Origin: Variovorax paradoxus
Lineage (GTDB): Bacteria > Pseudomonadota > Gammaproteobacteria > Burkholderiales > Burkholderiaceae_C
Direction of reading: 5' to 3'
DNA length: 64,000 bases
Assembly: GCF_009498455.1 (NCBI RefSeq)
Contig: NZ_CP045644.1
Coordinates: forward strand, 806,001 to 870,000
Shown: positions 428 through 22,523 of the stretch, piece by piece
How positions within the stretch are numbered: the stretch's first letter is position 1
Layout: every line of letters starts with the position of its first letter
Translations under genes and position numbers: made by a program
The notes under the pieces: model-generated
The model's database searches: none
The model's input: only the letters and a program-made list of their open reading frames with translations
Told to the model about the DNA's origin: nothing

Positions 428-468
428 TCACGGCTGCGGATTGCGGCGAATCCAGGCGGCCCAAACAA

Positions 469-476
469 GAACAACG
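469..476. repeat. Left target-site duplication of the IS66 element
   Basis: The octamer GAACAACG directly precedes the element and is repeated exactly at 2947-2954 on the other side. Eight base pairs is the normal duplication length for the IS66 family. Confidence 0.93.
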
Positions 477-502
477 GTATGCGTCCGGCCAAGACATCTT
501 GA
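477..502 (+). repeat. IS66 left terminal inverted repeat
   Basis: Twenty-six bases that match the reverse complement of 2921-2946 with two mismatches. The outer 13 bases, GTATGCGTCCGGC, are identical at both ends. IS66 termini typically begin with GTA. Confidence 0.93.
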
Positions 503-520
503 CCAGGCGCAGATGCTCGG

Positions 521-2098
521 TCAGGCAGCGCTGTCAGGTGTCCAGCTATAGGGCAGCAACTCTCGGATGCGGCTGTCTGGCTGCGTCGGCAACCTCTCCA
601 GCACATCCTTGAGGTACTGGTAAGGGTCATGCCCGTTGAGCCTAGCTGTGTGCAGCAAGCTCATGATCGCCGCCGCCCTTTGGCCGGCACGGAGGCTGCC
701 GGCGAACAACCAGTTCTTGCGGCCCAACGCGATAGGCCGGATCAGGTTCTCGACCCTGTTGTTGTCGATGCTCAGCTCGCCGTCGTCGACGTAGCGCGTG
801 AGCGCGGCCCAGCGTTTGAGGCTGTAGTCCATGGCCTTGGCTGTGGCGCTGCCATCGGGCAACTTCTGCCGGTGTGCCATCAACCAGGCATGCAGCAGGT
901 CGGCCGCCGGTCTCGCCCTGAGCCTTCGGATGTGAAGTCGTTCGTCGGGCGACAGCTCTTTGATCTCGCGCTCGATGTCGTAAAGCGTCGCAATCAACTT
1001 CAAGGCCTGCTCGGCCAGCGTGCTGCTGTGATTGGCCCACAGCTCGTGGAACTTGCGTCGCGCATGGGCCATGCAACCGGCCTCCGTGACGCCAGCCGCC
1101 ATGGCCTGCTTGTATCCCGAGTAGTCGTCACAGATCAACGTGCCGCGCCAACCGCCGCTGCCGTCCTCCTCGATGCCGAGGAAGCGGCGAGCGTGGCGCC
1201 CGGCCCGACTCTCTGCGAAGTCGAACACCACCGCGTCGATGTCGTCCCAGACCGTGGTGCAGTAGCTCCAAAGGTACGCGCGATGGGTCTTGCCCAGTCC
1301 CGGCGTGAGCATTGCAACTGGCGTTTCGTCGGCATGCAGCACTCGCCGGCCGAGCAGGTCTTCGCGCATGGCCTGGACCAGTGGCGCCAGCTGCACGCCG
1401 ATGGCGCCGATCCACTCGGCCTGCGTCGAGCGCGGTACGGCGAAGCCCGCCCGTCCGAGGATGCTCTCTTGCCGGTACAGCGGCTGATGATCGATGTACT
1501 TGGCCACAGTGACGTGGGCCATCAACCCAGCGGTGGCGATGCCCTTGTCGACGACGTGCGCGGGGACGGGCGCCTGGACCAGCGTCTGGCACTTGGTGCA
1601 GGCCCACTTGCCGCGGACGTGACGCTCTACCGTGAACGTGCCAGGCGTGTAGTCGAGCTTCTCAGCCACGTCCTCGCCGATGCGCTTGAGCGCGCAGCCG
1701 CAACTGCACGTCGTGGTCTCAGGCTCGTGGCATACCTCGCGCCGTGGGAAGTGCGCTGGCAGCGCGTGGCGCTTGGGCTGGCGCTTCTCATTGCTGTCCT
1801 TGGCGGCCGGAACCACCCTCTCGACCTCGCGGGCAAGCGCCTCGAGATCCTCGTCGATGGCTTCTTCGAGCAGGCTCTTCTGCTCCGGACTGAAGCGCTC
1901 GCTGGTGGCGGCGAACTTCAGCCGCTTCAGGACCGCCATCTCGTGCGTGAGCTTGTCGATCACGGTCTGCTTGAACGCCACGGCGCGTTCATGGCGAGCA
2001 ACGAGCTCGGACTTGAGCGTGACCTGCGCTCGCGCGGCGCGCAGTGCCTCGCGCAACTGCTGCGGGTCCAACGTGTCGATGTCGTCGTCTGCGATCAC
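521..2098 (-). CDS. tnpC: IS66 transposase TnpC
   Basis: This is the DDE transposase of the element, about 525 residues, close to the usual IS66 size. The protein has an N-terminal coiled region with the typical LKRLKFAATSERF segment, a zinc-finger-like segment with CSCG and a CTKC pair, then the catalytic core with HADETPV and CDDYSGYK and a C-terminal SIDNNRVEN motif carrying the last acidic residue. I place the start at a GTG (2096-2098), because the longer upstream opening looks like out-of-frame sequence. tnpB ends 74 bp upstream. No frameshift or stop is seen, so it is probably functional. Confidence 0.9.
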   Translation of the reverse strand: MIADDDIDTLDPQQLREALRAARAQVTLKSELVARHERAVAFKQTVIDKLTHEMAVLKRLKFAATSERFSPEQKSLLEEAIDEDLEALAREVERVVPAAKDSNEKRQPKRHALPAHFPRREVCHEPETTTCSCGCALKRIGEDVAEKLDYTPGTFTVERHVRGKWACTKCQTLVQAPVPAHVVDKGIATAGLMAHVTVAKYIDHQPLYRQESILGRAGFAVPRSTQAEWIGAIGVQLAPLVQAMREDLLGRRVLHADETPVAMLTPGLGKTHRAYLWSYCTTVWDDIDAVVFDFAESRAGRHARRFLGIEEDGSGGWRGTLICDDYSGYKQAMAAGVTEAGCMAHARRKFHELWANHSSTLAEQALKLIATLYDIEREIKELSPDERLHIRRLRARPAADLLHAWLMAHRQKLPDGSATAKAMDYSLKRWAALTRYVDDGELSIDNNRVENLIRPIALGRKNWLFAGSLRAGQRAAAIMSLLHTARLNGHDPYQYLKDVLERLPTQPDSRIRELLPYSWTPDSAA

Positions 2099-2172
2099 GG
2101 AGGGTGATCGTGCCAGAGGGCGGCCCTGCAGACCATCGGCACATCCCTCAATTGCGCGGCAGCGTTGCGCCT

Positions 2173-2499
2173 CTACACCACGGTGATCACGCCGGCTTCG
2201 CCGATGCGTTGCCAGGGTAGGCCGAGGACCAGTGCGTCGAACTGCGCCTGGGTCAGCGCCTCGTTCATGAGCGAGGCTCGAACGAAGCCGCCCTGATGAA
2301 GACGTCGAGCGCATAGCCAGATGCCGATGCCGTCGTGCACGAGCACCTTGAGCCGGTCACCGCGGCGATTAACGAAGACGTAGGCGTGGTGCGGATGGGC
2401 AGCGCCGAACACCGCGACGACCCGGCCCAATGCTGTGTTGGTTCCGGCGCGCATGTCCATCGGCTCCACCGACAGCCACAGTGCATCGACCCGGATCAC
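2173..2499 (-). CDS. tnpB: IS66 accessory protein TnpB (Orf2)
   Basis: A 108-residue protein of the IS66 Orf2 family, recognisable by an N-terminal VDALWLSVEPMDMRAG segment, the HHAYVFVNRRGDRLKVL block and a C-terminal LPWQRIGE. Its exact biochemical role in transposition is not well defined, but it is needed together with TnpA and TnpC in several IS66 members. The GTG start at 2497-2499 overlaps the TGA stop of tnpA by four bases, which points to translational coupling. Length and sequence are normal for the family. Confidence 0.9.
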   Translation of the reverse strand: MIRVDALWLSVEPMDMRAGTNTALGRVVAVFGAAHPHHAYVFVNRRGDRLKVLVHDGIGIWLCARRLHQGGFVRASLMNEALTQAQFDALVLGLPWQRIGEAGVITVV

Positions 2500-2867
2500 C
2501 GCAGCACCGCGCGCACCCAGGTCGCGCAGTCCGCTGCGGCGCTGACCGGCCAGATGACCGAGACGCTGACTCCACCGCGCTGAAGTTCGATGCGGATGTC
2601 GGTCTGTGGTTGCGGTGCAGGCAACTTCAGCGGAACGAACTCAGGGGCCGGCGGCGGCAGCGGTCTGACAGATGCAGCGGCAGGCTCAGGCTGCTCGGCA
2701 CAATTGACCCACCGGCGAAGCATGTTGGCATTGAGCCCGTTAGCCAGTGCGATCGCCGCGCTCGATACGCCAGGCTGCTGGCAGGCCCTGATGAGTTCGG
2801 CCTTGAACTCGGCGCTGTGCTTGCGCCTGCGCCGCCGGCCTGCTGGCTCCAAGACAGAAGTGTCCAC
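2496..2867 (-). CDS. tnpA: IS66 accessory protein TnpA (Orf1)
   Basis: A 123-residue protein with an N-terminal helix-turn-helix of the type shared by IS66 Orf1 and IS3 OrfA (RRRRRKHSAEFKAELIRAC followed by SSAAIALANGLNANMLRRW). The C-terminal half is proline-rich and then resembles the end of other IS66 Orf1 proteins. The start is a GTG at 2865-2867, 54 bp inside the right inverted repeat. It probably binds the element ends. It is coupled to tnpB by a four-base overlap. Confidence 0.85.
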   Translation of the reverse strand: MDTSVLEPAGRRRRRKHSAEFKAELIRACQQPGVSSAAIALANGLNANMLRRWVNCAEQPEPAAASVRPLPPPAPEFVPLKLPAPQPQTDIRIELQRGGVSVSVIWPVSAAADCATWVRAVLR

Positions 2868-2920
2868 GTGTCCACGAAGAAGTTAAGTGGAGTAGAGCCT
2901 CCTATGGAGCAGAGACGGAA

Positions 2921-2946
2921 TCAAGATGACTTTGCCGGACGCATAC
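2921..2946 (-). repeat. IS66 right terminal inverted repeat
   Basis: Reverse-complement partner of 477-502 with two mismatches in 26. It lies just upstream of tnpA and also supplies the substitute C-terminal codons and stop (2921-2923) of the interrupted membrane-protein gene. Confidence 0.93.
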
Positions 2947-2954
2947 GAACAACG
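2947..2954. repeat. Right target-site duplication of the IS66 element
   Basis: GAACAACG, identical to 469-476. Collapsing the two copies restores the reading frame of the interrupted small membrane-protein gene. Confidence 0.93.
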
Positions 2955-3130
2955 AGCGCGATTGCCCAGAAAATGGCGGCGGTGGTGTTGAGTCTGCGGC
3001 TGTAGAGGATGCCGAACAGTTCAAATTCCACGCCGCCCAATGCCAAGGCACCATGCGTAAGGATTTGATTGGCCGCGAACCCGCTCAAGAACTTGGCTAT
3101 TCCTCTATATCGCATATGCGTCACTCCGGG

Positions 3131-3694
3131 CTATAGAACACGAACAACCACTGCGCCAAGGGCGAGCACGAAAGCGACGACGCTCGGCACGGCGGTGAGT
3201 GCCATGCCGAATGAGCGCGCCGCCGCCCCTTTTGGGTAGCTGACGAAGAAGGCAATGCGGCCTACGGAGAAGAGAGTCACAGACGCCAGGATCAACGGCA
3301 TGGCAACTTCCCGTAGGACCATGAGCATCGCGAACTGCGTAACCATCATCACCACGGCCTGCTCCAAGGTGTTCTGGAGAAATGCGGCCGGCACTGCAAT
3401 CCGTGGGCTGGGAGTGGAGTAGGCCGCTCCGCGAATGTCCTGCGAGGAATGCCGCCGCCCGTTGGACACCATGCGAACGCCAACCATGATCCAGAAGACC
3501 ACAAACAGGCTGGAGCCGGCCCAGAATGTCAAGACAGACTCAAGATCGCCCGCAGGAAAGCGGATGAGTCGCGGCAACAGGAGGTGGGCCATGCCGAGCA
3601 CCATCGCGCAGACCAGTATGGCCGCCATGGAGCCGCGCAGGACGCCGCGCTGCTCCCGGCGAAATTCGGAATCCGTCAACTCATAGGCCGGCAT
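3131..3694 (-). CDS. MAPEG family membrane protein
   Basis: A 187-residue protein with four hydrophobic segments and the FLQNTLEQAV signature of the MAPEG superfamily (membrane-associated proteins in eicosanoid and glutathione metabolism), followed by YPKGAAARSFGMALTA, which also fits the family. Members act on lipophilic or thiol substrates, often with glutathione; bacterial substrates are mostly unknown. I chose the ATG at 3692-3694 because GAAGGAG lies seven bases upstream; a TTG eight codons earlier would overlap ccdA. Neighbours are ccdA, 16 bp upstream, and the interrupted small membrane protein downstream. In this redox operon a thiol-linked job is plausible but unproven. Confidence 0.75.
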   Translation of the reverse strand: MPAYELTDSEFRREQRGVLRGSMAAILVCAMVLGMAHLLLPRLIRFPAGDLESVLTFWAGSSLFVVFWIMVGVRMVSNGRRHSSQDIRGAAYSTPSPRIAVPAAFLQNTLEQAVVMMVTQFAMLMVLREVAMPLILASVTLFSVGRIAFFVSYPKGAAARSFGMALTAVPSVVAFVLALGAVVVRVL

Positions 3695-3710
3695 GATGGG
3701 CACTCCTTCG

Positions 3711-4448
3711 TCAGCCAATTCGCCCGAGCGACGGAAACATCCTTAGCAACCAGAACGACAGGTCGGTGAGGTGGCCGCTGATCATGGCTGCACCCATCGC
3801 AACCAGCACGATACCTCCGATCACCTGCAGCGGCCTGCTCAGCCGCCGGAGGGTCTGCTGGTGCCGCAACATCTGTCCCGTGAACGCCGCCGCGAGAACG
3901 AATGGAATGCCCAGGCCGGTTGAGTAGATCGCGAGCAGACCGACTCCGTCGAAGCCACCGGAGACAGCCGCCAACGTCAGTATCGCGCCCAGTACAGGGC
4001 CGATACAGGGTGTCCAACCGAAACCGAAGGCCAGGCCGAGCCCGAACGCCAAGACCGGTCGACCCCCTGGCCAAGCGGGGTGCCAGCGAACGTCGCGCTG
4101 CAGCCAACCGAACCCAGCCGGAATCCAGAGCATCAACAGCCCAAACAGCACGATCATCCCACCACCCAGCACGGAGGCTTCGCGCCGGTACTGAAGCAGA
4201 AGGCTGCCGACAGCCGATGCCGTTGCACCGAGCGCGGTGAACACTGTCGAGAAGCCGAGCACGAAGGCCAGCGCCAGCAGCGGTGGCGTCCAGCGAGTCG
4301 AGACGGCAGCGCCTTGCTCGCGCGCTGCCGTGCCCGCGATGAAAGAAACATATCCGGGGACGAGCGGCAGCACACAGGGTGACAGGAACGACACCACGCC
4401 TGCGGCAAACGCGGCGATCGGACCGAGTCCGGAGGAATCGAGTGCCAT
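3711..4448 (-). CDS. ccdA: Cytochrome c biogenesis protein CcdA
   Basis: A 245-residue inner-membrane protein of the CcdA/DsbD-beta family that carries electrons from cytosolic thioredoxin to periplasmic thiol proteins. It has six hydrophobic segments and the two conserved redox cysteines at residue 25 (FLSPCVLPLVPGY) and residue 148 (GWTPCIGPV). The ATG (4446-4448) overlaps the TGA of tlpA, so the two are translationally coupled; a longer opening upstream is only tlpA in another frame. With TlpA next to it, the pair forms a standard reductive relay that would keep apocytochrome or metal-ligand cysteines reduced. Complete and normal in length. Confidence 0.88.
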   Translation of the reverse strand: MALDSSGLGPIAAFAAGVVSFLSPCVLPLVPGYVSFIAGTAAREQGAAVSTRWTPPLLALAFVLGFSTVFTALGATASAVGSLLLQYRREASVLGGGMIVLFGLLMLWIPAGFGWLQRDVRWHPAWPGGRPVLAFGLGLAFGFGWTPCIGPVLGAILTLAAVSGGFDGVGLLAIYSTGLGIPFVLAAAFTGQMLRHQQTLRRLSRPLQVIGGIVLVAMGAAMISGHLTDLSFWLLRMFPSLGRIG

Positions 4449-5056
4449 CACCCAGGCCCCGCGCGCATTAGCGCTTTCAGCGCGTCGACGATCTTTGGGG
4501 CGTCCCACTCGGCGGTCCCGCTCATGCGGCCGATCTCGCGGCCCTGCCGGTCCAGCAGCAAAGTCGTCGGAACCCCAACCGCCTTGAGCTTGAAGATTGC
4601 GTTGGCTTCGGCGTCCTGGTAGATGGCAAGATGCCTGATCCCCTCTGAAGCATAGAAAGATTTGACCAACTCCAACCCCTTTGCTCCGGTGTCCATGGAC
4701 AGCGCGACGACCTGGAAATCAGCGCCGCCCAGTTGTGCCTGCAGGCGGTCCAGCGACGGCATCTCCTGCCGGCAGGGCGGGCACCAGGTTGCCCAGATGT
4801 TCAGAAGGACCACCTTGCCCTTCAGGCTCGCAAGTTCCACCGGTCGACCAGCACCGTCCAGCACACGCAGTTCCGGCAAAGGAATGGGCTGAGTGCGCAT
4901 GACGAGTGGCAGCGCTCCCGCAGCGGCGGTGGCAGGGACACGCGAGAACTCGAGGTACGCCAGCGCGCCCAGCCCTACCGCGAGGGGAAGGCCCAGGCCC
5001 AGTAGCCAACGGCGCCGACGAAGATTGACGGAATCCGGGGATTGCACGGGGTCCAT
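4448..5056 (-). CDS. tlpA: Membrane-anchored thioredoxin TlpA/ResA type
   Basis: A periplasm-facing thiol-disulfide reductase of about 202 residues. It has an N-terminal membrane anchor (residues 17-35 after an RRRR stretch), then a thioredoxin fold with the active site WCPPC (Cys92 and Cys95) and the cis-proline region GVPTTLLLDRQG. Such proteins receive electrons from CcdA and reduce cytochrome c or CuA-site cysteines. The ATG at 5056 is preferred over a GTG one codon earlier because GGAGGT is five bases upstream. It overlaps the stop of the Sco-like fragment and the start of ccdA, so all three are coupled. Confidence 0.88.
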   Translation of the reverse strand: MDPVQSPDSVNLRRRRWLLGLGLPLAVGLGALAYLEFSRVPATAAAGALPLVMRTQPIPLPELRVLDGAGRPVELASLKGKVVLLNIWATWCPPCRQEMPSLDRLQAQLGGADFQVVALSMDTGAKGLELVKSFYASEGIRHLAIYQDAEANAIFKLKAVGVPTTLLLDRQGREIGRMSGTAEWDAPKIVDALKALMRAGPG

Positions 5057-5409
5057 CACGCACCTCCCTGAAGCAACCTGGCATCGGACGCCAGCGCAGC
5101 GGCGCCGGCCCGGTTGCGCGTGTAGAGCCCGAAGAAGACGACCACGACTTCACCCTTGAAGTCCTTCAGACTGCGCACGGCGCTGTTCTGGTCGGGCAAT
5201 TGGAGGTCACGGGCGTACCCGGCACCGGTGATGTCGATCAGCTGAAACTGGCTTGTGCGCTGCTGCGACTTGGACGGCACGAGGATCGCTGCGGGGACGC
5301 CGAGCAGCATCGAGATGCAAAACACCAACGCGATGCGGCGCCGCTCCAGCTTCTTGTCGTCCGGGGCAGCGACGGAACGGCGCGCCCTGCGGGATGCCGA
5401 CGTCGTCAT
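5056..5409 (-). pseudogene. Truncated Sco1/SenC-like protein
   Basis: A 117-residue product. After a basic N-terminus and one membrane helix (about residues 25-45) it has the opening strands of a Sco1/SenC copper chaperone (FQLIDITGAGYARD and LKDFKGEVVVVFFG). The family normally continues directly with the CxxxC copper site; here that part is missing and the chain ends 23 residues later in unrelated sequence. It therefore cannot bind copper in the usual way. Its ATG overlaps the lspA stop and its TGA overlaps the tlpA start region, so it stays in the coupled operon. It is either a decayed gene kept as a translational bridge or a reduced membrane protein of unknown use. Confidence 0.65.
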
Positions 5410-5897
5410 ATGTTCTCCGTTGCCTGCGGCTGGCGCGCACCAGCGAACGACGTGAGCACTAGGCTGGCTGCGCCGACCGTGATGCCGATGTCGGCGACAT
5501 TGAAGGCTGGCCAGTGCCATCCACCAAGGTGTAAGTCCAGGTAATCGATCACCTGCCCTCGCACTGCGCGATCGAACGCATTGCCGAGTGCGCCGCCGAG
5601 GATCAGGCTGAACGCCAGCGATTCCGCGCGCGGCCGAGGAGCACGGATCATCCAGATCAGCCAGAACGAAATTGCCACCGCAATGGCCAAGAAGAACCAG
5701 CGCTGCCAGCCTCCGGCACCGGCCAGGAAGCTGAAGGCAGCCCCAGGATTGAGCACATGGACCAGATTGAAGAACGGTGTGACCGCATGCGACCACCCCA
5801 GGGAAGTCGTTGCGTCGATATAGCTCTTGGCTGCCTGATCGGCGGCGAGGACCATGATGGCGAGCGAGAACCATGATGCTTGTCGGGTTGAATGCAT
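5406..5897 (-). CDS. lspA: Lipoprotein signal peptidase LspA (copy 1)
   Basis: A 163-residue inner-membrane aspartyl protease that removes signal peptides from prolipoproteins. The five conserved family boxes are visible: DQAAK, NPGAAFSFLA, GGALGNAFDR, VIDYLD and FNVADIGI, with the two catalytic aspartates in the third and fifth. Four hydrophobic segments are present. I chose the ATG at 5897; the opening extends 14 codons further without a good ribosome site. It is clearly related to the second copy at 9995-10483. In the pbr lead operon of Cupriavidus a signal peptidase (PbrC) takes part in lead resistance, so this accessory copy may have a metal role rather than a housekeeping one. Confidence 0.88.
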   Translation of the reverse strand: MHSTRQASWFSLAIMVLAADQAAKSYIDATTSLGWSHAVTPFFNLVHVLNPGAAFSFLAGAGGWQRWFFLAIAVAISFWLIWMIRAPRPRAESLAFSLILGGALGNAFDRAVRGQVIDYLDLHLGGWHWPAFNVADIGITVGAASLVLTSFAGARQPQATENI

Positions 5898-6002
5898 GTT
5901 CACTTGGTTGGAATGGAGTCCGTCGGTGGTTTTCGTCACCCGTTCGGGGCTGTGGTCTCAGCGCCTCTTCGACCTGCTCGTCGGCCTGCGTGGCGCTCAA
6001 GT

Positions 6003-7325
6003 TCAGAGCGACCCGTAACTGTGGAGCCCTGACAGGAACATGTTCACGCCCAGAAATGCGAAGGTCGTCACCGCCAGTCCCACGAGGGCCCACCACGCGG
6101 AAGTGGCGCCGCGCAGTCCCTTCACCAGACGCAAGTGCAGCCAGGCCGCGTAGTTCAGCCAGACAATAAGCGCCCACGTCTCCTTCGGATCCCAGCTCCA
6201 GTAGCCGCCCCAGGCCTCGGCGGCCCACAGCGCCCCTAGCACCGTGGCCACCGTGAAGAAAGCGAAGCCAACGGCTATTGCCTTGTACATGACGTCATCG
6301 AGCACATCGAGCGCAGGAAGCCGCGATGCAATGCGCCGCCGCGCCAGCAGGATGCCGCCGACGATGAGAGACGACACGCCGAAGTAGACGGACCAGAACG
6401 ATCCGCCGGCTTCGGCGCCGCGACGGAACACCAACGGTTCAAGGCACAACGCCGTGCCCAGAAGCCACAGGGGAGCGAGCTTGTACCACTTGGTCTCGCC
6501 GGCCTGTTGCTTGATCAGATAGGCGAACGCCACCATCGCAGCCAGTGCGAACGTGCCGTATCCGACAAAGTTCGCCGGCACGTGGACCTTCATCCACCAG
6601 CTTTGCAGCGCTGGCACCAGCGGCTGGATCTCGTGCTGCTCACGAGCGAGCGTGTACCACAGCAAGAATCCCACCGCAGCACTGACAATCAGCATGGCGA
6701 ATGCGCCCAGGGCGCGAGTCTGGTAACGATCCTCGAAATACAGGTAGAACGCCGCCGTCATCCAACTGAACAGCACGAAGACTTCATAGAGGTTACTCAC
6801 CGGGATGTGGCCGATGTCCGGCCCCATCAGGTGGCTTTCGACCCAGCGCACCATCGTTCCGACAAGCGCCATCGTCACGGCTGCCCAAGCGAAACCCGTC
6901 CCCAGCCGGTCAAAGCCGACGGCGCGCGTGGCCAGCATGCCGACCCAGTAAAAGGCCGTGCTCATGAAAAAGAGCAGGCTCATCCACAGGATCGCCGACT
7001 GACTGGAAAGGAAGTATTTGAGCCAGAAGACCGACTCGGCGCGTTGCAGGTCGCCTTGGTAGGCCATGGCTGCCAGTACCGAAACGATCGCCACGCCGGC
7101 GATGAGTGCGCGCAGCGGCCGCCAGAACCAGCCCAGCCAGATCGCAGCCGGAACGGACAACGCTAGGATGGCCTTCTCGTAGATGTCCATGTGAGCCGCA
7201 TACGTGGCAAGCGCGTAGCCGCCTGCGGCAACGGCGAAGACAGCGAAAATCCAATCGACGGTATTGCGGCGCGCGAAGAATCCCTCGTGGAGGGAGATGG
7301 TGTAGGTCTGAGCAGTGGTGTTCAT
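6003..7325 (-). CDS. ccsB: System II cytochrome c biogenesis protein CcsB (ResC/CcsA type)
   Basis: A 440-residue polytopic protein with the tryptophan-rich haem-handling motif around residues 370-388 (WGGYWSWDPKETW) and a periplasmic WMKVHVPANFVGYG segment. It belongs to the haem-handling half of the System II cytochrome c synthase (named CcsB in protein-family databases, ResC or CcsA elsewhere). The partner that usually accompanies it, ResB, is not in this window. It lies 106 bp after dsbA and 105 bp before lspA, in the same orientation as tlpA and ccdA, which are the reductive arm of the same pathway. Length is normal and no defects are seen. Confidence 0.88.
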   Translation of the reverse strand: MNTTAQTYTISLHEGFFARRNTVDWIFAVFAVAAGGYALATYAAHMDIYEKAILALSVPAAIWLGWFWRPLRALIAGVAIVSVLAAMAYQGDLQRAESVFWLKYFLSSQSAILWMSLLFFMSTAFYWVGMLATRAVGFDRLGTGFAWAAVTMALVGTMVRWVESHLMGPDIGHIPVSNLYEVFVLFSWMTAAFYLYFEDRYQTRALGAFAMLIVSAAVGFLLWYTLAREQHEIQPLVPALQSWWMKVHVPANFVGYGTFALAAMVAFAYLIKQQAGETKWYKLAPLWLLGTALCLEPLVFRRGAEAGGSFWSVYFGVSSLIVGGILLARRRIASRLPALDVLDDVMYKAIAVGFAFFTVATVLGALWAAEAWGGYWSWDPKETWALIVWLNYAAWLHLRLVKGLRGATSAWWALVGLAVTTFAFLGVNMFLSGLHSYGSL

Positions 7326-7431
7326 TCGCTGCTTTGCGTGTTTCGTCCGGCGGAGGATGTAGAGGTCTCGCGTGAAGCCTCGCGGGTGTTGCAGGACGCA
7401 AAGTCCATCGCGGCAAATTCGTCGTCGTCCA

Positions 7432-8067
7432 CTATCCGCCCTTGCGAGCTAGGTCCAGCAGGTACTCGGCCACCGAGAGAGATTTGGAGTTCGATCCGGC
7501 CAGCGAACCGGATGCGAGCCAGCGACCATTCACACCGATCGACGGCGTGCCTTCGATCGCATAGCCGGTCGCCAGCGCGGTGGCTTGCTTCACCTTCGCC
7601 GCGACGCCGAAGGAGTCCAGTGCCTGAAGGAAACGCACGCGGTCCACGCCGTTGGCCGCTACGAAAGACCCGATCTGATCGGGCGCGTCCAGCTTCTTGC
7701 GTTCCACGTGCACGGCCGCGAAGACCTTGGGGTGCAATTGCTCCACCAATCCCATCGCCTCGATCGCGAAATACAGCTTCTGATGGATCACGAAGTCATC
7801 GCGAAACGCCACCGGGATGCGGCGGAAGATAACGTCGCGCGGCAGCTTTTTCTGCCACGCGTCGATCATGGGTTCAAAGGCATTGCAGTGCCCGCAGCTG
7901 TAGGCGAAGAATTCCAGCACCTCCAACTGGCGGGCGTCGCGGGTGGGCTGCCGCGTCTGCAGAACAACGTAGTTGCGTCCTTCCACCGGACGGTCCTGGG
8001 CGACCGCTGGCACGCTCCAGCCGGTCATGGGAGTAAATAGAGATGCTGCAAAAAGTCTTCGTTTCAT
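7432..8067 (-). CDS. dsbA: Thiol:disulfide oxidoreductase DsbA
   Basis: A 211-residue periplasmic oxidase that inserts disulfide bonds. It has a signal peptide (residues 1-23, ending near VAQ), a thioredoxin fold with an inserted helical domain, active site CGHC (Cys58-Cys61) in FFAYSCGHCNAFEP, and the cis-proline loop EGTPSIGVNG. The order of features and the length match DsbA. It is the first gene of the leftward redox operon, starting 37 bp downstream of the MerR-type promoter at 8104-8134. No dsbB partner is visible in the window. Confidence 0.88.
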   Translation of the reverse strand: MKRRLFAASLFTPMTGWSVPAVAQDRPVEGRNYVVLQTRQPTRDARQLEVLEFFAYSCGHCNAFEPMIDAWQKKLPRDVIFRRIPVAFRDDFVIHQKLYFAIEAMGLVEQLHPKVFAAVHVERKKLDAPDQIGSFVAANGVDRVRFLQALDSFGVAAKVKQATALATGYAIEGTPSIGVNGRWLASGSLAGSNSKSLSVAEYLLDLARKGG

Positions 8068-8103
8068 GAGAATCCGGGTGTGGCTGGTTCCACTGAGTCA
8101 CCA

Positions 8104-8134
8104 ATTAGAAACCATGAAGTCGGTACAAGGTCAA
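8104..8134 (-). promoter_or_regulatory. MerR-type promoter of the dsbA operon
   Basis: On the minus strand a -35 TTGACC (8129-8134) is followed by exactly 19 bases and a -10 TCTAAT (8104-8109). An imperfect dyad (ACCTTGTAC / CTTCATGGT) fills the spacer. The over-long spacer is typical of promoters activated by MerR-family regulators. No merR-like gene is adjacent; the nearest are pbrR (14196) and merR (19243). The site is 37 bp upstream of dsbA. Confidence 0.55.
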
Positions 8135-8283
8135 GCCATGCGGATCGTAAGCTGCGCCAGGGTGGGGAGATTGGGCTGCGTTTGTAGGGGCGCTGTCTAA
8201 AATGTTCGGCCATTGCACGATGACCGTTATCCGCAGGTTGCCGCTTGCGTACCGCGGCGTCCGAACTAGGCGAGACATTCACC

Positions 8284-9729
8284 ATGACCCAAGAACAAGC
8301 CCTCGACGTGCTGGTGATCGGCGCCGGCTCCGGCGGTTACATCGCATCGATCCGAGCTGGCCAGCTCGGCCTCAAGGTCGCGTGCGTTGAGGCCAACCCA
8401 TATGCCGACCCGAAGGGGGAGCCGCGACCGGGCGGAACCTGCCTGAACGTCGGCTGCATCCCCTCAAAGGCGCTGCTGTCGTCGAGCGAAGAGTTCGAGA
8501 AAATCGAGAAGCACGCTGCCGCCCATGGCATCCGCGTGGCGGGCGCCACGATGGACGTCCCGGCAATGATCGCGCGCAAGGACGCGATCGTGACCAAGAT
8601 GGCACAAGGCATCGAATACCTATTCCGAAAGAACAAGGTCGCTTACCTGAAGGGCCGCGCAAACATCCTTGGGCGCGCTGACGCCGGCTTCAGGGTATCC
8701 ATCACGCGGGCCGGTTCGACACAGGAAGTGACAGCACGCAACCTTGTGATCGCCACGGGATCGCTTCCTCGCCAGTTGCCCGGCATTGCCGTCGACAACA
8801 TGGACGTTTGCGACAACTCTGGGGCGCTGGACTGGCGCTCGGTGCCGCGTCGCATCGCGATCATCGGTGCCGGAGTAATCGGCCTCGAATTGGGTTCGGT
8901 ATGGCGCAGGCTGGGATCGCAGGTCACCGTGGTCGAAGCGTTGCCGCAGTTGCTGCCAATGTGCGATGCCGATGTCGGGCGCGAAATGCTCAAGCTGTTG
9001 ACGGCGCAAGGGATGGACTTTCGCTTCGGAGCGCGTGTAATGGCCCTCGAGCGGGCGGGCGATGGCGCGCTAAAGCTCTCCTATGCCGATGCGGGCGGAG
9101 CATCGCAATCGCTGGCTTGCGACAAGCTGGTGGTCGCGGCGGGCCGTGTTCCGACGACGGCGGGGCTGGGGCTTGATACCGTCGGCGTAAGGATCACCGA
9201 GCGCGGCTTCGTCGACGTCGACGAGCATTGCCGCACATCCGTCGAAGGCGTCTATGCTATCGGCGATGTGGTGCGGGGGCCTATGCTGGCACACAAGGCC
9301 GAAGACGAAGGCGTGATGGTGATGGAGCGCATCGCGGGCCAAGCCGGGCACGTGAACTATGACGCTATACCTTCGATCATCTACACCAGTCCAGAGATCG
9401 CGTGGGTCGGGCGCACGGAGCAGGCACTGAAGGACGCGGGCATCGAGTACAGGGCTGGCAAATTCCCATTCACTGCGAACGGGCGCGCGCTCGGAAACGG
9501 CGACACTTCCGGTTTCGTGAAGGTTCTGGCCGACAAAAAGACGGACGCCGTGCTGGGCGTCCACATCGTCAGCACGTACGCCTCAGAGATGATCGGCGAG
9601 GCGACGATGGCCATCGAGTTCAGGGCGGCGGCCGAGGACATCGGCCGGATCAGCCATGCGCACCCGACGCTTTACGAGGCGATGCGAGAAGCTTCGCTGG
9701 CGGCCGGCACGGGGGCTCTCAACCTGTGA
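8284..9729 (+). CDS. lpdA: Dihydrolipoamide dehydrogenase-like flavoprotein
   Basis: A 481-residue class I pyridine-nucleotide disulfide oxidoreductase. It shows an N-terminal FAD-binding GAGSGGY, the redox-active disulfide GGTCLNVGCIPSK (Cys53, Cys58), an NAD-binding GAGVIGLE and a C-terminal dimer domain with HAHPTLYEAMREA, which holds the catalytic His-Glu pair typical of lipoamide dehydrogenase. No lipoyl domain or 2-oxoacid dehydrogenase gene is nearby, so a stand-alone role with thiols or metals is likely. I chose the ATG at 8284; the opening extends 13 codons upstream. It is divergent from dsbA across 216 bp. It is a distant relative of merA at 20847 but lacks the C-terminal cysteine pair. 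Confidence 0.88.
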   Translation: MTQEQALDVLVIGAGSGGYIASIRAGQLGLKVACVEANPYADPKGEPRPGGTCLNVGCIPSKALLSSSEEFEKIEKHAAAHGIRVAGATMDVPAMIARKDAIVTKMAQGIEYLFRKNKVAYLKGRANILGRADAGFRVSITRAGSTQEVTARNLVIATGSLPRQLPGIAVDNMDVCDNSGALDWRSVPRRIAIIGAGVIGLELGSVWRRLGSQVTVVEALPQLLPMCDADVGREMLKLLTAQGMDFRFGARVMALERAGDGALKLSYADAGGASQSLACDKLVVAAGRVPTTAGLGLDTVGVRITERGFVDVDEHCRTSVEGVYAIGDVVRGPMLAHKAEDEGVMVMERIAGQAGHVNYDAIPSIIYTSPEIAWVGRTEQALKDAGIEYRAGKFPFTANGRALGNGDTSGFVKVLADKKTDAVLGVHIVSTYASEMIGEATMAIEFRAAAEDIGRISHAHPTLYEAMREASLAAGTGALNL

Positions 9730-9994
9730 GCCGCCCGGACGGTTGCAGGAATGGCCACGCTATCACCCATGCGCCTCCACAAGAAACTATCGCGGCGCGC
9801 TCACCGCCTTGCGCCGCACGAAGCCGGGACCGGGGCGCGTCGGCTGGCCTTCGTGCAAACGCAACGGCTGCCGCAGCGCAATTCCGCGATTGATCCGGAA
9901 TGCTTGCGAAGGCCGCGCTTGACTTGTTGCGTCTAGGAGGTGATGGCCATCGGCAATCAGCAATCGTCCACCAGCAGGCACTGCCCTATGGCCT

Positions 9995-10483
9995 TCAGGC
10001 ATCGGTGTGCTGTTGCCGGTCAGCTTTGAACAACGACGCGACGATCAGGCTTATCGCACCTCCCACGATCGCCATGTCAGCAACGTTGAACGCCGGCCAG
10101 TGCCATTGACGCAGATGGAAGTCGAAATAGTCGATAACCTGCCCGCGCATAGCCCGGTCGAAGGCATTGCCCAACGCACCGCCGAGGATGAGACTGTAGG
10201 CTAGGGCCTCAAGTCGTCGCACTGGCTTTGCCAGTAGCCAAACCAGCCAAATCGCGGCACTAACGGCGACAGCAAGTAGAAACCATCGTTGCCAACCACC
10301 GGAGTGCGCCAGAAAGCTGAACGCCGCCCCGGGATTCAGGACATGGACCAAGTTAAAAAAAGAGGTCACTTCATGGGACCAACCGAGCGGTGTTGTCATG
10401 TCGATGTAGCTCTTGATGGCTTGGTCGCCAGCAAACACTACAAATGCCAGGTAGTACCAGTTGGTTGAATGCGTGTAGTGCAT
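9995..10483 (-). CDS. pbrC: Lipoprotein signal peptidase, PbrC type (LspA copy 2)
   Basis: A 162-residue signal peptidase II with all conserved boxes (GDQAIKSYID, NPGAAFSFLA, GGALGNAFDRA, VIDYFD, FNVADMAI). It is the third gene of the pbrA-pbrB-pbrC set, 88 bp after pbrB. In the Cupriavidus lead operon PbrB and PbrC produce and process components for lead sequestration outside the cytosol; that role is transferred here from gene order. I start at the ATG at 10483, where AAGAAG lies upstream, and treat the longer opening as spurious. It is a paralogue of 5406-5897. Confidence 0.85.
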   Translation of the reverse strand: MHYTHSTNWYYLAFVVFAGDQAIKSYIDMTTPLGWSHEVTSFFNLVHVLNPGAAFSFLAHSGGWQRWFLLAVAVSAAIWLVWLLAKPVRRLEALAYSLILGGALGNAFDRAMRGQVIDYFDFHLRQWHWPAFNVADMAIVGGAISLIVASLFKADRQQHTDA

Positions 10484-10571
10484 CAATTCTTCTTTATTCG
10501 TCCAGGCCAAACTGGGACAGCTTGCCCGGGATTGCCAAGCGATCGACCTGTCGGACTGCATAGTCCGACAG

Positions 10572-11186
10572 TTACCGCATCGCGCTCGAGCGAGGCACAA
10601 GGAGCCGGATCAGTGCGGCCGAGATCGCGACGCACGCCCAGCCCAAGGCAAAGCTGGCAACGACATCCGCTGGGAAGTGGGCGCCAAGCGCGATGCGCGA
10701 CCAACCCACAGCGATAGCGAAGGCCAGAAGGCCGATTCGACCGGGCCAGCCGAGAATGGGCCAGATCGCCGCAGCCAGAACCGCCACGTAGGCGGCATGA
10801 CCGCTTGGAAACGAATAGCGACTGTCCGGCATCCCGACGATTCGAAAAACGCCTTCACCCAAGACCAGGGCGGGGCGCGGGAATGCGAATGCCGATTTCA
10901 AGAGGGCGGCCGATGACATGGCTAGCACCAAGCCAAAGACAAACCGTTGCAGGGTCAGGTTCGCAGAACGGGTTGCATCTGGCGCTTGGCTTCGGCGCCA
11001 GAGCAGGAGGACCGCGACGATCGCCGGAGCACCCCAATAGCTGCCTACCCAGCTCAAAGCTTCAGGCAGCCATAGCAGCTGATCTGGGACGGCATGATTC
11101 AAAAACATGAACAGGTTCACGTTCGCTCCGCCCCAGTCGTAGAGCCATTGCTTGAGCCATGCAGCAGAGATTGACGTTGCGTGCAC
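10572..11186 (-). CDS. pbrB: PAP2-family phosphatase PbrB type
   Basis: A 204-residue membrane protein of the type 2 phosphatidic acid phosphatase family, with the three catalytic motifs KSAFAFPRP, PSGHA and SRIALGAHFPADV and several hydrophobic helices. Such enzymes hydrolyse lipid pyrophosphates, for example undecaprenyl pyrophosphate, releasing phosphate in the periplasm. In lead-resistance operons PbrB supplies phosphate that precipitates Pb(II) exported by PbrA. It starts seven bases after the pbrA stop, so it is almost certainly co-transcribed. Complete, no anomalies. Confidence 0.85.
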   Translation of the reverse strand: MHATSISAAWLKQWLYDWGGANVNLFMFLNHAVPDQLLWLPEALSWVGSYWGAPAIVAVLLLWRRSQAPDATRSANLTLQRFVFGLVLAMSSAALLKSAFAFPRPALVLGEGVFRIVGMPDSRYSFPSGHAAYVAVLAAAIWPILGWPGRIGLLAFAIAVGWSRIALGAHFPADVVASFALGWACVAISAALIRLLVPRSSAMR

Positions 11187-14195: not shown

Positions 14196-14594
14196 ATGAT
14201 GCGGATCGGTGAATTGGGCAAGAAAGCAGACTGTTTGGTGCAGACCGTACGCTTCTACGAGTCCGAAGGCTTGCTTCCCGAGCCTGCGCGCAGCGAGGGC
14301 AACTTCAGGCTGTACGACGACTCGCACCTTGAACGCCTGCTGTTCATCCGCCGTTGTCGGGCCAAGGACATGACGCTGGAGGAAATCCGTCAACTTCTAG
14401 ATTTCCGGGATCGGCCCGAGCTGGACTGCGGCGAGGTGAACGCGCTGGTCGATTCCCACATCGCTCAAGTCCGGGCCAAGATGAAGGAGTTGCGCGAGCT
14501 CGAGCGCGAATTGACGGATTTGCGGCGCTCCTGCGATACCGCCCGAACCTCGCGCGAGTGCGGCATTCTCAACAGCTTGACCGAGCCCGCCTGA
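14196..14594 (+). CDS. pbrR: MerR-family Pb(II)/Cd(II) regulator
   Basis: A 132-residue activator with an N-terminal winged helix (MRIGELGKKADC through TVRFYESEGLLP), a coiled-coil dimer helix and a C-terminal metal loop. Cysteines 78, 113 and 122 (ELDCGEVN, SCDTARTSRECGIL) match the three ligands used by CadR/PbrR proteins for large divalent metals. GGAGGAG lies five bases before the first of two adjacent ATG codons. It is divergent from pbrA, and the 19-bp-spaced promoter lies in between. It may also act on the related sites at 15867-15897 and 16022-16052. The Pb versus Cd preference is not decidable here. Confidence 0.88.
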   Translation: MMRIGELGKKADCLVQTVRFYESEGLLPEPARSEGNFRLYDDSHLERLLFIRRCRAKDMTLEEIRQLLDFRDRPELDCGEVNALVDSHIAQVRAKMKELRELERELTDLRRSCDTARTSRECGILNSLTEPA

Positions 14595-15838: not shown

Positions 15839-15866
15839 CATTGTCCTTACAAGGGGTTTGACTGCG

Positions 15867-16733: not shown

Positions 16734-18665
16734 TCATGCAGCCTGCAATCGACGGCCCTTGTATGCGTTCATCGCGAAGCCCGAGACCGCAATCAGCAGA
16801 ACGATGACCTGGGCCACCACGGTTTCGGCCGAGGGGTACATGCCCAGCAAGTCGATCCGGGGCGCCATGATCGGAGTCGCACCCAGCCAGCCAGCTTCCT
16901 GCAGCCCCGCGACGCCCTTACCGGCCAGGACAACGGCGAGCACAGCGACCAGGAACGAGCTGATGCTGAAGAATTTCCCGATCGGCATCCGAGCGCTAGT
17001 CCTGAGCATCACCCAGGCAAGGACGGCCAGGAGTGCGACGCCCAAGGCGAGACCGCCCAGCAGTGCATCGCCATTCCCATCGGCGGACAGGGCCGAGTAG
17101 AAAAGCACGGTCTCGAAGACCTCGCGGTATACCGCAATGAACGAAAGACCGAACAAGGCCCACGCCGAGCGCTTCGACATGGCCGAGGACAGCTTTTCCT
17201 TGAGGTAGGCCTGCCAACGGCCCGCAGCGCTCTTCTGGTGCATCCACAAGCCCACGCTCAGCAGCACGAGCGCGGCAAAGAGCGACGAGAGCCCTTCGGT
17301 CACCTCTCGGCTTGCCCCGCTGATGTTCACGAAATAAGTTGCCACCGCCCAAGTCAGACCGCCGGCGGCCAACGCCACGATCCAGCCGCCGTGCACGTAG
17401 CGCAGGACGTCCGGACGATTGGCCTTCTTCAGGAAGGCCACCATGCCGACAACGATCAACAGAGCCTCGAGCCCTTCTCTCAGCAAGATCGTCAGAGAGC
17501 CCAGGAAGGTGGTGAGCGGTGCGGCCGATTCCCCACCCAGCTCCTTTTCCACCTCGGCAAAGAGGTAGTCCAGCTTTTGAGCTGCGGCCTCGGCTTGAGC
17601 CAGCGTGCCGTTGGCAATGGCCGAGCGATAGGCCAGCATGCCGTTTTCCACTTCCGTCAGAAGCGCCTTGTTGCGCGCGCCCAGGGACGGCTCCAGCGGC
17701 TCGAAGCCATCAAGGTAGGCGGAGAGCGCCAGCCGCGTGGCCGTCGGCTTGTCGCCCTTGCGAATTGCGGCCAGGCTCTCGTCAAGGCGCGTGCGGGAAA
17801 GGGTCAACGCGCCGGCGTTCCCCGCCGCGGACGCCGCCTCGGGCTGGCTGCGCAGGAAGGCGGTCACATCTCGAGCCGCCTCAGGCCCGATCCGGGCGGC
17901 TGCTGCCACTTCGGTGACCGTGGTCACTGCGGCCAGGTCTGCGAATTCCTTGCGAGTTGCGGCATCTCGTTTCCACAGCTGCTCGCCTCGTTCGCGCATG
18001 CCAGCATCATGAGAAAGCGTGCCGGCAAAGAACGCCAGCGCCCACCGGTCCTCATCGGGCAGCCCAGCAAAACTCGGCATCGCCGTGCCGGTAACGCCCT
18101 GGGAGACGACTTGATAGAGCGCCATGAGACTTCGCGAGCGAGCACGTTCCCGGTCCGTGAAGGCGATCGGCGGTGGCTCCATTTTGGCTGCGAGTGGTCC
18201 ATCGCCTCCGCCCGCAGTGCCGTGACAGGATGCGCATTGGGCTTGGAAGAGCGCCGCGCCTCGCTTGAGGTCTGGCAGGGCCTTCGGTGCCACGGGGATA
18301 GGATAGGCGGCCACCAGCAGCGCTTCCGCTTCATGCGCCAGGCGCGCGACCTCTGCGCTATCTGCCTTACCGGAAACGGCCGCCTGCAGTTTGGTGGCAG
18401 CAGTGACTACCGCTTCCTTGGAGGCATGCGCAGGAAGGCTGCGCGCCTGGGTCACCGCATTGGTGGTGAAATCTCGCATCTCCGCATATTCCGACTCGCT
18501 GACGATGGCGCCTTTGTCGACCGCACCACCGTAGTCCACGGCGACATAGTCCAGCAGCTGCCATAGCTGACGCGGCCCTTCAGCGGCTCCAGCAGCAGGG
18601 GTCTGCGCGGTGGCAGAGCCCATGAAACACAGTCCAACCCACAGAATCAACAACAAGCGCTTCAT
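16734..18665 (-). CDS. pbrT: Cytochrome c-FTR1 fusion permease, PbrT type
   Basis: A 643-residue protein with a signal peptide (1-20), a helical periplasmic region containing a class I haem site CASCH (144-148) with a distal methionine in GTAMPSF, and a C-terminal seven-helix FTR1 iron-permease domain. The domain has both acidic metal motifs, REGLE (396-400) and REVFE (514-518). FTR1 permeases import Fe, coupled to redox at the membrane; the homologue PbrT in Cupriavidus imports Pb(II). Placement beside the pbr genes supports the PbrT name, but iron uptake is an equal possibility. Convergent with the CDF gene. Confidence 0.8.
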   Translation of the reverse strand: MKRLLLILWVGLCFMGSATAQTPAAGAAEGPRQLWQLLDYVAVDYGGAVDKGAIVSESEYAEMRDFTTNAVTQARSLPAHASKEAVVTAATKLQAAVSGKADSAEVARLAHEAEALLVAAYPIPVAPKALPDLKRGAALFQAQCASCHGTAGGGDGPLAAKMEPPPIAFTDRERARSRSLMALYQVVSQGVTGTAMPSFAGLPDEDRWALAFFAGTLSHDAGMRERGEQLWKRDAATRKEFADLAAVTTVTEVAAAARIGPEAARDVTAFLRSQPEAASAAGNAGALTLSRTRLDESLAAIRKGDKPTATRLALSAYLDGFEPLEPSLGARNKALLTEVENGMLAYRSAIANGTLAQAEAAAQKLDYLFAEVEKELGGESAAPLTTFLGSLTILLREGLEALLIVVGMVAFLKKANRPDVLRYVHGGWIVALAAGGLTWAVATYFVNISGASREVTEGLSSLFAALVLLSVGLWMHQKSAAGRWQAYLKEKLSSAMSKRSAWALFGLSFIAVYREVFETVLFYSALSADGNGDALLGGLALGVALLAVLAWVMLRTSARMPIGKFFSISSFLVAVLAVVLAGKGVAGLQEAGWLGATPIMAPRIDLLGMYPSAETVVAQVIVLLIAVSGFAMNAYKGRRLQAA

Positions 18666-20816: not shown

Positions 20817-22523
<1,707 letters not shown>

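What the first reader, a model, noticed from the sequence alone, without database searches (positions are those of the whole stretch)
428..8134. A metal-responsive periplasmic thiol-redox and cytochrome c operon
Eight leftward genes (dsbA, ccsB, lspA, Sco-like fragment, tlpA, ccdA, MAPEG, small membrane protein) combine disulfide formation, thiol reduction, haem attachment and lipoprotein processing. They start 37 bp from a promoter with the MerR-type 19-bp spacer, and five of the junctions overlap or lie within 16 bp. I know of no described metal-regulated operon of this make-up. It could protect or rebuild periplasmic thiols and cytochromes damaged by Hg, Pb or Cu.
Basis: partly seen in the sequence, partly recalled or inferred. 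Interest (0 to 1): 0.75.

Follow-up and report, generated by a model that had tools for sequence, protein, structure and literature searches.

The report
Trimmed lead/cadmium operon with thiol-redox genes
This bacterium carries a shortened copy of a lead/cadmium resistance operon whose remaining genes handle sulphur chemistry and haem outside the inner membrane, led by a disulfide enzyme with an altered active site.

Summary
The genes are real, and the 19-bp-spacer promoter holds up. Its motif precedes dsbA in 16 of 22 members of one DsbA clade (5 of the 11 not used to find it) and 0 of 34 other rows. A genome scan gave 6 sites, all at metal-resistance clusters, none in the reversed control. 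Regulators are CadR/PbrR type, so Pb/Cd/Zn is likelier than Hg or Cu.

The set is an eroded form of a larger operon of Comamonadaceae/Sphaerotilaceae, in composite dsbA-cdf-(ccsB)-pbrA-pap2-dctQM-lspA-sco-tlpA-(ccdA)-mapeg-cadR. Here cdf is a 36-codon scar, the exporter block a dctM-tail scar, Sco has lost its copper motif, and an IS66 element cuts the last ORF.

DsbA lacks oxidase-type motifs: all 22 clade members have CGHC/CSHC/CEHC with Thr-cisPro; the housekeeping copy has CPHC/Val-cisPro. Best reading: a CadR/PbrR-induced periplasmic thiol repair or reduction branch of Pb/Cd resistance, working like ScsB-ScsC. The cytochrome role is weak: the only ResB found lies elsewhere. PAGI-2 is a precedent for dsb, cytochrome and metal genes on one island. 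Induction is untested.

The parts
8104..8134 (-). CadR/PbrR-type promoter/operator TTGACC-N19-TCTAAT, ending 36 nt before dsbA
   Evidence: sequence; alignment with 10 relatives; genome scan; matrix score 53.4, reversed window 8.1; 16/22 clade, 0/34 non-clade
7432..8067 (-). dsbA, 211 aa; active site CGHC, Thr-cisPro (TPS); member of a DsbA clade mostly found in metal clusters
   Evidence: PF01323, 1.4e-14; clade support 100/99; nearest solved structures are DsbA
7322..7432 (-). 36-codon scar of a cation-diffusion-facilitator (cdf) gene; start overlaps the dsbA stop, stop overlaps the ccsB start
   Evidence: (540 bp missing relative to L014)
6003..7325 (-). ccsB (CcsA/ResC-type haem handling), 440 aa
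   Evidence: TIGR03144, 260.1 bits, cut-off 187.6
5904..6002 (-). decayed remnant of a dctM 3' end: scar of a lost pbrA-pap2-dctQ-dctM block
   Evidence: alignments upstream of lspA; shuffle control
5406..5903 (-). lspA (signal peptidase II), GTG start, 165 aa
   Evidence: PF01252; TIGR00077, 131.3 bits
5056..5409 (-). sco with a 321-bp in-frame internal deletion, copper motif CPDVC lost (117 aa)
   Evidence: (no family); intact relative in L017 is PF02630 SCO1-SenC
4448..5059 (-). tlpA/resA-type thiol-disulfide reductase, WCPPC
   Evidence: PF08534; NF047696, 158 bits, below its cut-off of 230
3711..4448 (-). ccdA (DsbD transmembrane domain), 245 aa
   Evidence: (PF02683, 4.6e-14)
3131..3694 (-). 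MAPEG-family membrane protein
   Evidence: PF01124, 1.8e-07; relatives of 38-79% in metal clusters
2921..3124 (-). small membrane ORF interrupted by IS66; its annotated last 26 nt belong to the IS
   Evidence: intact 63-aa homologue in L110
477..2946 (.). IS66-family element with 8-bp target duplications (469-476, 2947-2954)
   Evidence: (NF033517, 447.7 bits)
8284..9729 (+). lpd-like dihydrolipoamide dehydrogenase, divergent; also found near dsbA in relatives
   Evidence: (7 of the 10 loci L014-L023, in pieces in L020)
9995..10600 (-). second lspA (pbrC-like)
10572..11186 (-). PAP2 phosphatase (pbrB-like)
   Evidence: PF01569
11194..14103 (-). pbrA/zntA-type P-type ATPase
   Evidence: TIGR01525, 599.1 bits
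14145..14175 (-). pbrA promoter/operator TTGACT-N19-TCCAAT
14196..14594 (+). CadR/PbrR regulator divergent from pbrA
   Evidence: TIGR02047, 176.7 bits, cut-off 151.45
16734..18665 (-). PbrT-like FTR1 permease with a cytochrome c domain (CxxCH at residue 144); possible client of haem attachment

Best explanation
This is a shortened derivative of a CadR/PbrR-controlled Pb/Cd/Zn resistance operon of Comamonadaceae-type bacteria. Shown from sequence: the gene order, the conserved MerR-type promoter, three deletion scars, the IS66 insertion, and the DsbA clade with altered active site. Inferred: Pb, Cd or Zn bound by a CadR/PbrR regulator switches on dsbA-ccsB-lspA-tlpA-ccdA-mapeg, while export is left to the nearby pbrA-pap2-lspA unit under its own operator. 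CcdA would pass electrons from cytoplasmic thioredoxin to TlpA and probably to the CGHC/Thr-cisPro DsbA. These would reduce or reshuffle periplasmic thiols that the metal has bound or that were mis-oxidised, much as ScsB keeps ScsC reduced in copper tolerance. LspA and MAPEG would act on lipoproteins or membrane thiols; CcsB would at most support haem attachment with the chromosomal ResB.
For: Relatives: L014-L023 carry dsbA with varying sets of cdf, pbrA, pap2, lspA, sco, tlpA, mapeg and a CadR/PbrR gene. Promoter: within 250 bp upstream in 16 of 22 clade members and 0 of 34 others. Genome scan with a pattern that includes this site, up to 3 mismatches: 6 hits, 0 in the reversed control: this operon, two pbrA copies, a third P-type ATPase divergon, czcI followed by TolC-CzcB-CzcA-type genes, and an FA_hydroxylase/DUF3703 gene in the second pbr cluster. 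A CadR/PbrR gene 2.3 kb left of the window is 86-91% identical to the operon-terminal regulators of L016-L020, with a dsbA-type operator ending 442 nt before it. Scars. DsbA: 22-row clade with support 100/99; 19 of 22 have PbrA, the CDF or a MerR at least 40% like the window's within 10.5 kb, against 1 of 34 outside; all 22 CG/S/EHC with Thr-cisPro. Window against L014, dN/dS is 0.12-0.28 for dsbA, ccsB, lspA, tlpA and ccdA. A stand-alone DsbD N-domain lies 3.5 kb left of the window. E. coli dsbA mutants are Cd/Zn sensitive because these metals bind free thiols (PMC7598926, passages).
Against: No expression data. The operator dyad is imperfect (5 of 7). Eleven of the 16 promoter-positive rows are the window and L014-L023, where I first saw the motif; among the 11 clade members added later 5 have it. 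Which CadR/PbrR gene acts is unsettled: in L018 the dsbA-type operator precedes a regulator 81% like the window's own. Four near non-clade rows have Thr-cisPro with CPHC, so Thr-cisPro is not strictly a metal trait, and 3 of 22 clade members have no metal gene detected nearby. The motifs suggest, but do not prove, a less oxidising enzyme; S. [quoted passage not shown] Cd/Zn sensitivity of dsbA mutants concerns oxidation, the opposite direction to a reducing role. Scars and the IS show ongoing decay.
Confidence: 0.6

Rival explanations
1. Decaying remnant: after loss of the exporter block, cdf and Sco, and after the IS66 insertion, the leftover genes are transcribed but no longer needed, because pbrA-pap2-lspA nearby and a second pbr copy at 4.17 Mb do the work.
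For: Three scars and an IS; a second cluster with PbrA 94% and regulator 97% identical; other ccsB, lspA and dsbA genes in the genome.
Against: dsbA, ccsB, lspA, tlpA, ccdA and mapeg are intact frames; dN/dS 0.12-0.28 against L014, which shares the short ccsB-lspA junction (one pair, NG86, and it does not isolate the time since the window's own cdf and sco deletions). Lowered from 0.22 to 0.18 because of this result.
Confidence: 0.18
2. Cytochrome/haem branch: CcsB, TlpA and CcdA mainly mature c-type cytochromes needed for metal handling, such as the PbrT-like permease with a CxxCH domain at 16734-18665.
For: CcsB passes its curated cut-off; the PbrT-like protein has a cytochrome c domain; dsbA of this clade lies about 1.9 kb from ccmF in L090; ccsB also occurs in two chromate clusters; PAGI-2 carries dsb, cytochrome c biogenesis and metal genes (PMC7685784, passage).
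Against: The only ResB match in the genome is at 243702-245759 beside the housekeeping CcsB; of the 10 loci L014-L023 only L014, L015 and L016 carry ccsB.
Confidence: 0.1
3. Copper-handling module (Scs/Sco-like), induced by Cu rather than Pb/Cd.
For: Sco of L014, L016, L017 and L019 has CPDVC; the Scs system is the best functional parallel (PMC8900818, passages).
Against: Sco is broken here; both regulators pass the CadR/PbrR cut-off and score below the CueR cut-off; the sites found by the scan are at Pb/Cd/Zn-type genes.
Confidence: 0.05

Closest known systems
pbr lead-resistance operon of Cupriavidus metallidurans (pbrTR-ABCD; PMC3431237, abstract and passages)
   Same: CadR/PbrR-type regulator, 19-bp spacer promoter, PbrA + PAP2 + LspA nearby, PbrT-like permease in the same window
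   Different: Adds dsbA, tlpA, ccdA, sco, ccsB and mapeg; the ATPase and phosphatase are no longer in this unit; the passages seen name no thiol-redox gene in pbr
cdfX-pbrR2-cadA-pbrC2 of island CMGI-1 in C. metallidurans (PMC2864759, passages)
   Same: CDF, PbrR, CadA and PbrC together on an island
   Different: No dsb genes named: 'dsb' and 'lspA' have 0 occurrences in that main text
PAGI-2 island of Pseudomonas aeruginosa (PMC7685784 and PMC3360775, one passage each)
   Same: dsb components, cytochrome c biogenesis and heavy-metal determinants on one island
   Different: The passages name cytochrome system I and say nothing of a CadR/PbrR promoter over dsb genes; the island itself was not compared here
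ScsABCD, suppressor of copper sensitivity (PMC8900818, passages)
   Same: DsbA-like protein with Thr-cisPro, DsbD-type transmembrane electron donor, metal tolerance
   Different: Copper, not Pb/Cd; ScsB is one three-domain protein, here DsbD_N, CcdA and TlpA are separate genes
Sphaerotilus sulfidivorans plasmid pSna507_unt12 (NZ_CP035709): lspA-dsbD_N-SCO-dsbA and cadA-cadR-thioredoxin-dsbB
   Same: Same kinds of genes gathered round CadR and a P-type ATPase
   Different: DsbA is 35% identical and has CPHC; a parallel assembly
System II cytochrome c biogenesis (CcsA/ResC, ResB, CcdA, ResA)
   Same: CcsB, CcdA and TlpA/ResA-like proteins present
   Different: No ResB in the operon

Membership tests
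CadR/PbrR-controlled (pbr/cad) resistance operon | CadR/PbrR-family regulator linked to the locus | tested here: met
   TIGR02047 above cut-off for 14196-14594 and for the gene left of the window (175.3 bits)
CadR/PbrR-controlled (pbr/cad) resistance operon | Promoter with 19-bp spacer holding the operator | tested here: met
   dyad 5 of 7 in the window copy
CadR/PbrR-controlled (pbr/cad) resistance operon | P-type ATPase in the same transcription unit | tested here: not met
   A dctM-tail scar stands in its place; PbrA lies between dsbA and lspA in L016-L020, and here 3-6 kb upstream under its own promoter. So the claim is 'derived from', not 'is', a pbr operon
CadR/PbrR-controlled (pbr/cad) resistance operon | Induction by Pb, Cd or Zn | not testable with these tools
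   -
ScsABCD | ScsB: one protein with N, transmembrane and C domains | tested here: not met
   CcdA and TlpA are separate; DsbD_N lies outside the window
ScsABCD | DsbA-like partner with Thr-cisPro | tested here: met
   window sequence, clade
ScsABCD | Copper-dependent role | not testable with these tools
Canonical DsbA oxidase | CPHC with Val-cisPro (most characterised monomeric DsbAs, PMC7089426 passage) | tested here: not met
   CGHC, Thr-cisPro
System II cytochrome c biogenesis locus | CcsA/CcsB together with ResB | tested here: not met
   One ResB match in the genome, at G000:C1:243702-245759

The most novel reading that the evidence does not exclude
Burkholderiales evolved a dedicated Pb/Cd-induced DsbA subfamily (CG/S/EHC, Thr-cisPro) which, fed by CcdA/TlpA and a stand-alone DsbD N-domain, strips metal from or reshuffles metal-damaged periplasmic thiols: a 'thiol-repair' arm of lead/cadmium resistance beside efflux and phosphate sequestration.
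Probability: 0.35. Interest if true: 0.75.

Novelty: new variant of a known kind. Interest (0 to 1): 0.5.

Why it matters
Pb resistance by pbr is described as export plus phosphate sequestration (PMC3431237, passage). A recurrent, CadR/PbrR-controlled set of thiol-redox genes, with its own DsbA clade carrying a changed active site, would add repair of a main target of these metals, periplasmic thiols. It also gives a simple testable link between a short motif, a promoter and a metal. The trimmed form in this genome is a natural experiment: transport genes excised, redox genes kept and under purifying selection relative to L014.

Tried and rejected
Plasmid megablast of 2940-9800 gave only 39-48-bp matches in 7 records, 5 of them in lpdA, so the operon is not in PLSDB at that sensitivity. 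Plasmid protein searches with CcsB and DsbA led, in the six regions I opened, to chromate clusters, a copper-gene neighbourhood, a housekeeping-type context, a CcdA/ResB/CcsB cluster and the Sphaerotilus plasmid, not to orthologues of the operon. MAPEG matched in 7 of 250 order genomes, the window's included, mostly weakly. DsbA at E <= 1e-68 in 399 order genomes matched only the window's genome (12 of that sample are listed as of the family).

A claim that all deletions in this operon family keep the reading frame was dropped: the window's cdf and sco deletions are 540 and 321 bp (in frame), but the dctM scar and the ccdA remnants of L016 and L020 are not clean frames. Hg as inducer was not favoured on regulator type. 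No structure was predicted.

Paper searches: of ten, seven looked for dsb/tlp or cytochrome genes in pbr, cad or island contexts; two of these listed nothing, one search listed 20 of 34. No listed title or abstract start describes dsb/tlp genes in a pbr or cad operon. I then read passages only of PMC3431237, PMC1526738, PMC2864759, PMC7008767, PMC6305408, PMC10304878, PMC3360775 and PMC7685784; these bear on precedent through PAGI-2 (above) and a citation of work on B. cepacia DsbA-DsbB in Zn/Cd resistance. The other three searches were about DsbA and Scs. Subscription journals are mostly not held.

Score changes after re-checking: interest from 0.55 to 0.5 because of PAGI-2; the remnant rival from 0.22 to 0.18 because of dN/dS.
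Full report
What is there. The window lies at 806001-870000 of a single 7,288,087-base contig. Reading leftward from 8134: promoter, dsbA, a cdf scar, ccsB, a dctM-tail scar, lspA, a shortened sco, tlpA, ccdA, mapeg, and a small ORF cut by an IS66-family element. The 106-bp gap after dsbA is bridged by a scar ORF whose start overlaps the dsbA stop and whose stop overlaps the ccsB start. No transcript data exist.

The fuller operon. A scan of genome contigs with DsbA gave 39 loci. The ten most similar (L014-L023, 59-91%) carry other genes of the window's metal region; the other 29 showed no hit to them (many are short contigs). In L016 the order is lpd divergent, then dsbA-cdf-ccsB-pbrA-pap2-dctM-lspA-sco-tlpA-mapeg-cadR, with pbrA in two frames and cadR cut by the locus end. 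L017 and L019 are similar without ccsB; dctQ and dctM were family-tested in L017, dctM in L016. L018 lacks the cdf and L020 lacks pap2 among the hits; L021-L023 are rearranged. No single locus holds every gene of the composite order. Against L014, the window lost 540 bp of cdf and 321 bp of sco, both in frame. The 99 nt before lspA align with the dctM tail that precedes lspA in L016-L020 (scores 27-35; maxima of 500 shuffles each 16-20) and with the same short junction in L014 (57; shuffles 15). In L020 only this tail separates pbrA from lspA. So the finding is the redox half of a Pb/Cd operon from which transport genes were removed. PbrA, PAP2 and a second LspA remain 2-6 kb upstream under a related promoter.

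The promoter. TTGACC-N19-TCTAAT begins 67 nt and ends 36 nt before the dsbA ATG. Ten relatives share the motif while flanking sequence diverges. A matrix trained on nine relatives' sites scores it 53.4 bits; the next in the window is the pbrA promoter with 30.9; the reversed window reaches 8.1. With a degenerate pattern that includes this site and up to 3 mismatches, the genome has 6 hits and the reversed pattern none. The hits are this operon, pbrA, a second pbrA copy (94%), a P-type ATPase divergon (56% to PbrA over residues 266-680), czcI followed by TolC/CzcB/CzcA-type genes, and an FA_hydroxylase/DUF3703 gene in the second pbr cluster (the CzcI hit, 74 bits, is below its cut-off of 100). 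TTGAC[CT]-N19-hexamer (at least 3 matches to TATAAT) occurs within 250 bp upstream of dsbA in 16 of 22 clade members and 0 of 34 other rows (25, 9). The motif was first seen in the window and L014-L023, which supply 11 of the 16; of the 11 clade members added later 5 have it. Of the six without it, L095 and L096 have dsbA at the end of a pbrA-pap2-lspA-tlpA-dsbA run, L098 has only 77 bases upstream, and L093, L094 and L099 simply lack it.

The regulators. 14196-14594 is CadR/PbrR by TIGR02047 (176.7 bits, cut-off 151.45). A second CadR/PbrR gene (175.3 bits) lies at 803267-803743, 2.3 kb left of the window. It is 86-91% identical to the operon-terminal regulators of L016-L020 and 51% to the first, and a dsbA-type operator (38.7 bits) ends 442 nt before it. 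That makes it the likelier cognate regulator, but in L018 the dsbA-type operator precedes a regulator 81% like the first one, so this is open.

The DsbA. Sixty DsbA stretches were collected; four of the 39 loci (L047, L049, L050, L052) dropped out because their DsbA is partial, and of the family hits I fetched 20 regions, chosen for high identity, so this is not a random sample. After dropping five duplicate loci and adding the window, the tree has 56 rows; a 22-row clade with support 100/99 holds the window. Nineteen of these 22 have PbrA, the CDF or a MerR at least 40% like the window's within 10.5 kb; outside the clade 1 of 34 does, the Sphaerotilus plasmid. All 22 have a non-proline first residue between the cysteines (9 CGHC, 9 CSHC, 4 CEHC) and Thr-cisPro. 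The 34 others are 30 CPHC, 3 CTHC and 1 CGHC (an Acinetobacter plasmid near copper genes); 29 have Val-cisPro, 4 Thr-cisPro, 1 was not read. Of 255 homologues at E <= 1e-60 the best 120 are listed (the window's own among them): none has CPHC, and the 119 whose cisPro motif was read have Thr-cisPro. At least 14 of 399 family genomes hold a clade member (those that I fetched and placed, the window's included; others, such as G559 and G416, were not placed). PMC7089426 (passages) states that 75% of characterised monomeric DsbAs pair CPHC with Val-cisPro, that DsbC pairs CGYC with Thr-cisPro, and that the dipeptide affects redox potential. A less oxidising, reductase- or isomerase-leaning enzyme is plausible, not shown.

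Selection. Window against L014, dN/dS (NG86) is 0.16 for dsbA, 0.12 ccsB, 0.28 lspA, 0.15 tlpA and 0.13 ccdA. Both share the short ccsB-lspA junction, so the redox genes were kept without the exporter; one pair cannot date this against the window's own later deletions.

Mechanism. CcdA and TlpA are a standard route for electrons from cytoplasmic thioredoxin to the periplasm (recalled knowledge). A stand-alone DsbD N-domain (PF11412) lies 3.5 kb left of the window, so all three kinds of DsbD part are in the neighbourhood as separate genes. ScsB keeps the Thr-cisPro protein ScsC reduced, and this supports copper tolerance, though S. Typhimurium ScsC shows neither oxidase nor isomerase activity (PMC8900818, passages). 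E. coli dsbA mutants are Cd and Zn sensitive because the metals bind free thiols (PMC7598926, passages); that speaks for disulfide formation as protection, so an oxidising role of this DsbA is not excluded. The inferred role is thiol repair or reduction in the periplasm when Pb/Cd/Zn is present. The haem part is weaker: one ResB match in the genome, not here, and ccsB in 3 of the 10 close loci. A possible client is the PbrT-like FTR1 permease with a cytochrome c domain at 16734-18665.

Known or new. The described pbr operon has a 19-bp spacer promoter, PbrA, PbrB/C and PbrR (PMC3431237, abstract and passages). PMC1526738 (passages) surveyed MerR-type regulons and has no occurrence of 'disulfide' or 'lspA' in its main text; its supplementary operon tables were not seen. 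PAGI-2 of P. aeruginosa is a precedent for dsb, cytochrome c biogenesis and metal genes on one island (PMC7685784, PMC3360775, one passage each). In the searches named under Tried and rejected no listed title or abstract start describes a CadR/PbrR-controlled thiol-redox operon. Verdict: a new variant of a known kind, eroded in this genome, with a DsbA clade worth biochemistry.

Noticed in passing
G000:C1:801954-805911 (L115:14955-18912), just left of the window: Stand-alone DsbD N-domain, a CadR/PbrR regulator with a dsbA-type operator, and a cytochrome b561 gene about 100 bp downstream of a PbrR-like site (27.7 bits) at window 8-38.
   Followed up: partly
G000:C1:4170000-4176500 (L112): Second pbr cluster: PbrA 94%, regulator 97%, CDF 92% and (partial) PbrT-like 97% identical to the window's, followed by an LspA.
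   Followed up: partly
window 14603-15952: Fatty-acid-hydroxylase (OlsE-like) protein fused to DUF3703. PbrR-like sites lie in the 5' part of its longest frame (15867-15897, 22.7 bits) and just before the CDF gene (16022-16052, 17.0 bits); its copy in the second pbr cluster has one too. A membrane-lipid enzyme in a Pb/Cd regulon would be unusual.
   Followed up: partly
window 8284-9729 and L014-L016, L018-L021: An lpd-like dihydrolipoamide dehydrogenase recurs near dsbA in 7 of 10 close relatives, often divergent; its role beside a thiol-redox operon is unexplained.
   Followed up: no
L017:14811-17071, L016:16461-17666: TRAP-transporter genes dctQ/dctM inside the Pb/Cd operon between pap2 and lspA; substrate unknown.
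   Followed up: no
L103, L104 (C. metallidurans and B. vietnamiensis plasmids): ccsB (with resB nearby in L103) inside chromate-resistance clusters: haem-handling genes recruited to another metal system.
   Followed up: no
L090: A CSHC DsbA of the same clade, with a MerR-type promoter, on the same strand as ccmF (family-tested) and genes that look by eye like conjugation genes.
   Followed up: partly
L093: A CSHC DsbA of the same clade directly after a full-length DsbD-type gene (DsbD_N, DsbD_TM, thioredoxin domain), on a 6-kb contig without hits to the window's metal genes.
   Followed up: partly
window 20847-22523: MerA mercuric reductase: a mer gene in the same region.
   Followed up: no
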